From Infirmifilum lucidum (GTDB lineage Archaea > Thermoproteota > Thermoprotei > Thermofilales > Thermofilaceae), in the NCBI RefSeq assembly GCF_014876775.1, contig NZ_CP062310.1, positions 1,031,699 to 1,095,698 on the forward strand: a DNA stretch of 64,000 nt. The letters are read 5' to 3'. A program made the translations under genes and the position numbers. Shown in pieces: positions 38,112-48,151 of this stretch. Numbering within the stretch: the first letter of the stretch is position 1; each line of letters opens with the position of its first letter. The notes under the pieces were generated by a model that saw nothing but the letters and a program-made list of their open reading frames with translations, did not search any database and was not told where the DNA came from.

Positions 38112-38714
38112 GTGGAATCTGAGGGCCAGGTTGTAAGAGAGGCCTTTAAAGGCAAGCTGGGAGGAGGTCATGTAACTGTCTGTAGTGAAGAAGCGGTTTC
38201 TTTTCTCAGCGAGAGAGGTTACGGCTTTCGAGAAAAAGAGTGCATCAGATTAACGCTTCTCGAAGCGGCCTACCTTGCCTATAGGGGGCTCCTCGTAATA
38301 GAGGATGAGTCGGGCAGGATGCTGGACTTCAACTCTATAGTTTCGATTGGAGGCGAGAGAGACAGAGAATTCTGGGTGAGGCTTAATGTCTACTCAGATT
38401 TGAGGAACCGCGCCCTGGTGGCTCTCCCGGGTGTGGACGCTCTTGAATTCCTTCTTGACTGGAAGAGAAAGGATAAAGTCAAAAGGTATCTCATCAGGGT
38501 CGTGAAAGAGGGCTCGAAGATAAGCTTCAAGGAGTTCGAGGAAATGTTTCGTAGGGCTCTTGAGAGCGATAGGGAACTCGTGATAGCAATAGTTGATAAG
38601 GAGGGTGTCATATCATATTACACTGTAGAGGGTGTCCTACGTGAACTCCCAGAAGCTGAAGATAGTGACGAGATACAAGTTGAGCAAGAAAGACAAGAAG
38701 GCACTGGTAGATGA
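38112..38714 (+). CDS. tRNA-splicing endonuclease structural (beta) subunit
   Basis: 200 residues of EndA fold. The N-terminal half has LTLLEAAYLAYRGLLVI, and the C-terminal half has LNVYSDLRNRAL, the usual YRDLR/RG position. The catalytic residues are not seen: where the family has a His the sequence is DKVKRYLIRVV, and the lysine before the final strand is Arg (ESDRELVIAIVD). This fits the non-catalytic subunit of the crenarchaeal alpha2-beta2 enzyme, the form known to accept non-canonical BHB introns. That agrees with the introns at 47.7-58.9 kb. It overlaps the PUA gene. Confidence 0.78.
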   Translation: MESEGQVVREAFKGKLGGGHVTVCSEEAVSFLSERGYGFREKECIRLTLLEAAYLAYRGLLVIEDESGRMLDFNSIVSIGGERDREFWVRLNVYSDLRNRALVALPGVDALEFLLDWKRKDKVKRYLIRVVKEGSKISFKEFEEMFRRALESDRELVIAIVDKEGVISYYTVEGVLRELPEAEDSDEIQVEQERQEGTGR

Positions 38715-47190: not shown

Positions 47191-47681
47191 ATGCCCTTCT
47201 AGGAACTAGAGTATTCAAGAATAGCAAGCGGGAATCTGAACCCTGGAAACTCTCGATATCCTGCAGTTCACGCAGACAGGAGCCTCCTGTAGAGGGAGCT
47301 GGCACAGTGTGGTTTTTCCAGCGCAGTGCCCGTAGCGTGTCATCTGTGCCACCAGTGTAGAGTAGTGTTGTAGCGAGGAGCCCCTCCTGGCCCTCAATGT
47401 GTCTCAGCAGGCTAAGTAACCCGTACGCCTGCGGTACAAGCCCCGCCCACCTACACGCCTTCCGTGAAGGGCCAGGTGGCTAATGCCACCAACGTCGGCG
47501 GCGAGCTCAGGCTAGATACACTCTCCTGAAAGCTGAACGTTTTGAGCTCGTGACAGGCTCTCTAAGAGGACGGACTCCACGGCGGGGGAAGGCCGCTCCT
47601 TCTCACTAGACATCTAGAACTGACGCAGGCTAACAAGCCCATTTTTCAAAAAACGGTTACCCGGTTAAAATGAAAAAATTA
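47191..47681. other. 490-bp gene-free, hairpin-rich stretch
   Basis: I see no convincing protein gene. It has several perfect hairpins: ACAGGA/TCCTGT (47276-47290), GGCAC/GTGCC (47301-47330), CCTTC/GAAGG (47458-47470) and GGTGGC/GCCACC (47475-47490). It could be a structured RNA. It does not show the domain IV motif of SRP RNA or the P4 core of RNase P RNA, so I leave it unassigned. An A/T-rich block (47641-47680) separates it from tRNA-Trp. Confidence 0.4.
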
Positions 47682-47821
47682 TGGGCCGGCGGGGACTTGA
47701 ACCCCGGACTTCCGCCGAGCAGCGACGCCCTACGGCGAGGGCGCGCACACTACGACTACGGGTCTGGAGCCTCGGCCTACCTTTAATCGACCGCCGCTCT
47801 ACCTTGCTGAGCTACCGGCCC
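47682..47821 (-). tRNA. tRNA-Trp(CCA) with two non-canonical introns
   Basis: The acceptor, D and T arms are complete, but no single intron gives a U33. Two introns do. Exon 1 is 47821-47791, intron 1 (20 nt) 47790-47771 at position 30/31, exon 2 47770-47756, intron 2 (46 nt) 47755-47710 at 45/46, exon 3 47709-47682. The product is 74 nt with anticodon arm GCGGG-CTCCAGA-CCCGT, variable loop AGGTC and discriminator A. BHB central helices: CGGC/GCCG (intron 1) and CCGT/GCGG with G-U (intron 2). Confidence 0.85.
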
Positions 47822-48007
47822 TCTTCACTACTGAAGAGTTAAAAGTCAACATAAATCTTTCTCTAGGCATAACTGCCGTCTCCCGCTCTTCACATCTCGC
47901 CTGACTCTGAGCCGAAAATCGCCAAGAGTAGCCCTCTAGTACAACAAAAATGGAAACAAGAGTTCACGGGAAGCCGGCCCTATTACGCATATTGTCCAGA
48001 GCCAAAA

Positions 48008-48040: not shown

Positions 48041-48151
48041 GCCCCGGTCGTCTAGTGGCCCAGGAAGACCTAGTCCTGGAGTGGCGGCCTGTCGACGGGC
48101 TAAGTCTCGACAGAGAGCCGCAGATCCCGGGTTCGAATCCCGGCCGGGGCG
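48041..48151 (+). tRNA. tRNA-Asp(GTC) with a 16-nt D-arm intron and a 21-nt anticodon-loop intron
   Basis: Exon 1 48041-48065, intron 1 48066-48081 (16 nt, at position 24/25), exon 2 48082-48094, intron 2 48095-48115 (21 nt, 37/38), exon 3 48116-48151. The spliced tRNA is 74 nt: D stem GTCT/GGAT, anticodon arm GCGGC-CTGTCGA-GCCGC, T arm CCGGG-TTCGAAT-CCCGG, discriminator G. Central BHB helices are CCAG/CTGG for intron 1 and CTGT/ACAG for intron 2, both perfect. Confidence 0.93.

What the first reader, a model, noticed from the sequence alone, without database searches (positions are those of the whole stretch)
47682..47821. tRNA-Trp with two introns, neither at 37/38
A 140-nt locus with perfect acceptor, D and T arms that cannot be solved with one intron. 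Introns at 30/31 (20 nt) and 45/46 (46 nt) both show 4-bp central BHB helices and yield anticodon loop CTCCAGA and variable loop AGGTC. Standard tRNA scans may miss or misname such a gene.
Basis: seen in the sequence. Interest (0 to 1): 0.6.

Follow-up and report, generated by a model that had tools for sequence, protein, structure and literature searches.

The report
tRNA-Trp gene with two introns
A heat-loving archaeon's tryptophan tRNA gene is interrupted by two short introns at unusual places; the reading is right and relatives show the joined form, but this is a known habit of this group of archaea.

Summary
Window 47682-47821 (minus strand) is a 140-nt tRNA-Trp(CCA) gene with perfect acceptor, D and T arms. 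No single intron solves it; introns of 20 nt at 30/31 and 46 nt at 45/46 do, each with a 4-bp central helix. Relatives decide it: 11 loci of other genomes carry the predicted 23-nt joined stretch (positions 26-48) unbroken, and five of six congeners lack the 45/46 intron and read AGGTC through that junction. No second intact tRNA-Trp gene turned up in this genome, which encodes two splicing-endonuclease homologues (one in the window) and RtcB ligase. It is not new in kind: introns at 30/31 and 45/46, and several per gene, are published for these archaea, and 4 of 48 class genomes with a recognised tRNA-Trp have both. The newer part is its history: the 45/46 intron resembles that of tRNA-Lys(CTT) of the same genome, not that of tRNA-Trp in G004, suggesting exchange between tRNA genes. 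In passing: two candidate split tRNA-Trp genes, broken at the same 30/31 position, in other species.

The parts
47682..47821 (-). tRNA-Trp(CCA) gene, whole (three exons, two introns)
47791..47821 (-). exon 1, tRNA positions 1-30 (31 nt with the extra D-loop base)
   Evidence: same sequence layout in six congeners
47771..47790 (-). intron 1 at 30/31, 20 nt
   Evidence: same position in 15 of 49 tRNA-Trp rows
47756..47770 (-). exon 2, positions 31-45, with anticodon CCA at 47765-47767
   Evidence: unbroken in orthologues
47710..47755 (-). intron 2 at 45/46, 46 nt
   Evidence: absent in five of six congeners
47682..47709 (-). exon 3, position 46 to discriminator A73
47793..47796 (-). exon strand (CGGC) of central helix 1; pairs with GCCG at 47773-47776
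47758..47761 (-). exon strand (CCGU) of central helix 2; pairs with GCGG at 47712-47715
47850..47863 (-). TATA-like stretch AGAAAGATTTATG upstream; read by eye, nearly the same as that of tRNA-Arg L064
47654..47671 (-). 3' trailer element ATTTTAACCGGGTAACCG shared with other tRNA genes of this genome
38112..38714 (+). PF01974 splicing-endonuclease homologue without an obvious catalytic triad, probably the structural subunit

Best explanation
A functional tRNA-Trp(CCA) gene, apparently the only one of its genome (a member of the Thermofilaceae), whose precursor carries two introns in non-canonical positions, 30/31 (20 nt) and 45/46 (46 nt). It is transcribed as one precursor; a two-subunit archaeal splicing endonuclease cuts at two relaxed bulge-helix-bulge sites, RtcB joins the exons, and the product is an ordinary 74-nt tRNA-Trp. 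Shown here: anatomy, central helices, junctions seen unbroken in orthologues, presence of the enzyme genes. Inferred: transcription, cleavage and ligation.
For: No one-intron solution, and the two-intron solution with full stems. All six congeners carry an orthologue with a 30/31 intron; five read AGGTC unbroken where G000 has the 45/46 intron. The predicted joined 23-nt stretch occurs unbroken in 11 loci of other genomes. In G004 the 45/46 central helix changes on both sides (CCGU/GCGG to CCGA/UCGG); tRNA-Lys(TTT) changes the 30/31 helix to CGAC/GUCG. One match to the loop-plus-T-arm pattern in the genome. Two PF01974 genes and RtcB.
Against: No RNA data. Neither motif is a strict BHB. Free folding does not favour the 30/31 register: forced fold -59.2 against -67.4 kcal/mol at 37 C, -15.1 against -17.9 at 80 C.
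Confidence: 0.96

Rival explanations
1. Other splice sites: introns of 56 and 10-11 nt giving anticodon loop CTAGGGC (anticodon AGG).
For: Two such frames also have both central helices 4/4.
Against: No outer helix at the first site, and orthologues show the CTCCAGA product. That archaea do not use A34 anticodons is recalled.
Confidence: 0.01
2. A silent pseudogene, with the working tRNA-Trp elsewhere, split or permuted.
For: Split and permuted tRNA genes occur in this group (PMC3218864), and this genome has a permuted iMet.
Against: All stems are perfect, a TATA-like box lies upstream, and no other candidate was found. A split tRNA-Trp with an altered loop would escape those searches.
Confidence: 0.02
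3. On history: the 45/46 intron was inherited from a common ancestor with G004 and lost in the other five congeners, not exchanged with tRNA-Lys(CTT).
For: Same position in G000, G004, G013 and G016 tRNA-Trp.
Against: Without its last 6 nt the G000 intron is no more like the G004 intron than shuffles are (413 of 1000 score as high), while against tRNA-Lys(CTT) of the same genome 0 of 1000 do. Short introns diverge fast, and the shuffles keep base composition only.
Confidence: 0.35

Closest known systems
tRNA-Trp of G004 (1,781,889-bp contig; that this is Thermofilum pendens Hrk 5 is recalled from the size, no call names it)
   Same: Isotype, near-identical exons, introns at both 30/31 and 45/46
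   Different: Introns of 15 and 20 nt; the 45/46 intron is not alike in sequence
Multi-intron tRNA genes of Thermoproteales (reviewed in PMC4090602, section 4 read; original Sugahara et al. papers not read)
   Same: Two or three BHB introns per gene at positions including 30/31 and 45/46
   Different: Nothing in kind
tRNA-Thr(GGU) of Caldiarchaeum subterraneum with introns at 24/25 and 45/46 (PMC3293823, passages)
   Same: Two introns, one at 45/46, none at 37/38 in the passages seen
   Different: Other isotype, other first position
Archaeal tRNA-Trp with a canonical box C/D guide-bearing intron (PMC4090602)
   Same: Same isotype, BHB splicing
   Different: No 37/38 intron here, and no guide RNA family hit in the introns

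Membership tests
archaeal tRNA-Trp(CCA) | cloverleaf with CCA anticodon after splicing | tested here: met
archaeal tRNA-Trp(CCA) | charged with tryptophan | not testable with these tools
   A73 and orthology only
archaeal BHB tRNA introns, non-canonical position | 4-bp exon-intron central helix at each site | tested here: met
   CGGC/GCCG and CCGU/GCGG
archaeal BHB tRNA introns, non-canonical position | strict hBHBh' form with outer and inner helices | tested here: not met
   outer 3 bp and inner 1 bp at 30/31; outer 0 and inner 2 bp at 45/46. Relaxed forms are accepted in the family (PMC6379350)
archaeal BHB tRNA introns, non-canonical position | excised by splicing endonuclease in the cell | not testable with these tools
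   enzyme genes present
canonical tRNA-Trp intron with box C/D guide | intron at 37/38 | tested here: not met
   exon 2 runs unbroken through 37/38
split or permuted tRNA | exons in separate or circularly permuted loci | tested here: not met
   three exons collinear within 140 nt

The most novel reading that the evidence does not exclude
The 46-nt 45/46 intron of this tRNA-Trp is a recent arrival copied from tRNA-Lys(CTT) of the same genome (or the reverse) through their nearly identical exons, a fresh case of intron movement between tRNA genes. The 30/31 joint of the same tRNA became the break point of split genes in related genera, so that tRNA-Trp(CCA) offers a series from intronless to one intron to two introns to split.
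Probability: 0.5. Interest if true: 0.45.

Novelty: new member of a known kind. Interest (0 to 1): 0.25.

Why it matters
As a gene it matters for annotation: it appears to be the genome's only tRNA-Trp, and simple scanners miss it or misplace its anticodon. Its relatives form a natural series at one joint: no intron, a 30/31 intron, introns at both sites, and (in other genera) a gene broken apart at 30/31. The order of intron gain and gene splitting in archaeal tRNAs, called a matter of open debate in PMC3218864, could be tested on this one tRNA.

Tried and rejected
One-intron solutions: none. A chance two-intron solution: rejected by the orthologues; the shuffle control alone is moderate (75 of 2000 any, 3 of 2000 with a CTNNNRA loop). 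A second Trp gene: not found; one search is uninformative, since the bare heptamer occurs 359 times. A guide RNA inside an intron: no Rfam hit. A covariance model of mature tRNA-Trp (R1) proved not Trp-specific: it lists most tRNAs, and in this genome other isotypes outscore the target, so I dropped it for counting and used loop-plus-T-arm patterns, which miss 33 of 81 class genomes; their tRNA-Trp state is unknown here. The 45/46 introns of three tRNA-Arg genes of this genome also resemble the Trp one (scores reached by 14, 7 and 6 of 1000 shuffles), less strongly than Lys (0 of 1000), so Lys as the partner is favoured, not proved. The 3' flank likeness of Trp and Lys(CTT) is no evidence of a Lys-specific exchange, because the same trailer follows other tRNAs. 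The free fold did not support the 30/31 BHB register. The genome contigs pattern scan gave 4 records, fewer than genome search; its note says near records may be left out.

Full report
What is there. Window 47682-47821, minus strand, reads as a tRNA whose acceptor stem (7/7), D stem (4/4) and T stem (5/5) pair without fault, while the stretch between D and T arms is 89 nt instead of about 23. I enumerated the ways to remove one or two introns from that stretch. One intron: no solution with a 4/5 or better anticodon stem and T33 (variable loop 3-6 nt). Two introns: 110 frames with a 5/5 stem and T33, three with both exon-intron central helices 4/4. In 2000 base shuffles of the inner stretch, 75 gave some double solution, 9 one with a first-site outer helix of 3 or more, 3 one with a CTNNNRA loop.

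Where it lies. The window is part of one 1,625,846-bp contig, G000, 99.95% complete. The family is Thermofilaceae by inference: G016 and G013, same family, have contigs of the same lengths as records titled 'Thermofilaceae archaeon'.

Proof from relatives. All six other genus members searched have an orthologue with an intron at the same 30/31 position. Five of them (G001, G002, G003, G005, G006) have no 45/46 intron and read CCCGT-AGGTC straight through; G004 has a 20-nt intron there. Across the class I searched 81 genomes for the loop followed by a T arm: 44 of 81 matched with a short spacer (45 places) and 4 others with a long one, in all 48 genomes and 49 places. Of these 49 rows: 15 have the 30/31 intron, 10 a 45/46 intron, 4 both (G000, G004, G013, G016), 22 neither; 5 have no 5' part found by the script (G018, G011, a second degenerate copy in G005, G070, G071), and 2 are built otherwise (G019, G039). 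The other 33 of 81 genomes were not matched and their state is unknown here. The predicted mature stretch GGCGGGCTCCAGACCCGTAGGTC occurs unbroken in 11 of the fetched loci, all of other genomes.

The splice motifs. At 45/46 the central helix is CCGU/GCGG here and CCGA/UCGG in G004, a change on both sides; 15 of the 16 45/46 introns that I listed keep 4/4 pairs, G013 has 3/4. At 30/31 the exon strand CGGC faces GCCG or GUCG in most tRNA-Trp, and tRNA-Lys(TTT) has CGAC/GUCG; 12 of 14 listed junctions are 4/4, G013 and G070 are 3/4. These lists are the ones I put together, not all in existence. Both motifs are relaxed, not strict. The computed fold does not favour the 30/31 register: -67.4 free against -59.2 kcal/mol forced at 37 C, -17.9 against -15.1 at 80 C. 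That counts mildly against it.

Machinery and copy number. Two PF01974 genes are present, one at window 38112-38714 without an obvious catalytic triad and one elsewhere with the stretches YVVKSGMKFG and HSVKKKF (which I take for catalytic motifs from memory), plus one RtcB. A review says that only the (alpha-beta)2 and epsilon2 types of endonuclease efficiently remove relaxed-motif introns (PMC6379350, passages). Reading anticodon loops by eye in 44 tRNA candidates, plus a permuted iMet and a Tyr gene, I count 46 tRNA genes and one tRNA-Trp; the isotypes were read by eye, not by a program. The loop-plus-T-arm pattern gives a single match in G000.

History. The same genome has tRNA-Lys(CTT) at C1:958856-958996 with introns at the same two positions, 77% identical over the aligned 161 query bases. 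Without its last 6 nt the Trp 45/46 intron aligns to the Lys(CTT) one better than any of 1000 base shuffles; the three tRNA-Arg 45/46 introns of this genome give 14, 7 and 6 of 1000; the G004 tRNA-Trp intron gives 413 of 1000. The simplest reading is exchange between tRNA genes inside this genome, as proposed for this order (Fujishima et al. 2010, cited in PMC4090602 and PMC4033280; passages; the original was not read). The shuffles ignore structure, and the direction is unknown.

Compared with what is known. PMC4090602 section 4 (read whole) lists 30/31 and 45/46 among non-canonical positions. PMC3218864 (passages and part 1 of section 5) places most multi-intron tRNAs in Pyrobaculum and Thermofilum. 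PMC3293823 (passages) has a tRNA-Thr with introns at 24/25 and 45/46. PMC8450103 (passages) counts 673 non-canonical introns in 217 archaeal genomes. This gene is therefore a new member of a known kind. Five searches of the open library listed no paper that I saw to describe this particular gene; the key Mol. Biol. Evol. papers were not read, and Sugahara et al. 2007 is not held.

A by-product that may be worth more than the finding. In G070 the tRNA-Trp exons are 939 nt apart on one strand, broken at 30/31. The related G072 has an intact gene with a 37-nt 30/31 intron between flanks 92.8% and 93.8% identical to G070's. The 5' piece is followed by a GC-rich stretch complementary to the one before the 3' piece and then by a T run, and the 3' piece has its own TATA-like box. 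Its central helix is only 3/4, which counts against it. In G071 the 5' and 3' pieces lie on different contigs with a 14-nt perfect complement next to the break and a 4/4 central helix. Both look like split tRNA-Trp genes. Table 1 of PMC3218864 lists no split tRNA-Trp, and that paper states that none of the five Pyrobaculum genomes then known had split tRNAs. Searches for later reports listed none by title. A 939-nt intron in G070, or a binning error in G071, is not excluded.

Noticed in passing
L189 (G070:C1:1553300-1557300; reverse-strand offsets 990 and 1960) against L197 (G072): Candidate split tRNA-Trp: exons 939 nt apart, broken at 30/31, with complementary trailer and leader and a TATA-like box before the 3' piece; the syntenic gene in G072 is intact with a 37-nt intron, a before-and-after pair. 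The central helix is 3/4.
   Followed up: partly
L196 (G071:C46) and L190 (G071:C28; contig of the length of JAJHRB010000006.1, Thermoproteaceae MAG): Candidate split tRNA-Trp in a MAG: 5' and 3' pieces on different contigs with a 14-nt perfect complement, plus a 45/46 intron in the 3' piece.
   Followed up: partly
L206 (G071:C81:633-657) and L213 (G071:C31:342-366): Two more tRNA 5' pieces ending at position 30 with no tRNA continuation in the bases printed, of the tRNA-Lys type by eye; possible further split genes.
   Followed up: no
window 47654-47671 (minus) and eight other places in G000: An 18-nt element ATTTTAACYGGRTAAYYG (up to 2 mismatches) occurs 9 times in the genome, 9 of 9 just 3' of a tRNA gene on its sense strand (reversed control: 1). 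A looser form was not seen in 449 kb of fetched loci of other genomes. Function unknown; perhaps a terminator or a trailer spread by gene conversion.
   Followed up: partly
window 48041-48151 (plus): A neighbouring tRNA-Asp(GTC) gene that seems to hold two introns (D arm and 37/38, not resolved); missed by ARAGORN and just under Rfam's cut-off at 28.8 bits.
   Followed up: partly
L217 (G000:C1:837800-838400), around 838035-838129: Permuted initiator tRNA-Met: the 3' part lies upstream of the 5' part, broken in the T loop, with flanking complementary stretches, the arrangement published for Thermofilum pendens (PMC3218864).
   Followed up: partly
L218 (G000:C1:513900-514500): tRNA-Tyr(GTA) in linear form with a long intron after the anticodon and probably a second insertion in the variable region; in T. 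pendens the Tyr gene is reported as permuted.
   Followed up: no
L139 (G005:C1:48093 and upstream, minus): A second, degenerate tRNA-Trp-like gene with a 30/31-type intron and a poor acceptor stem, in a genus member that also has an intact gene.
   Followed up: no
L061 (G000:C1:958856-958996, minus): tRNA-Lys(CTT) with introns at the same two positions as the tRNA-Trp of the window.
   Followed up: yes
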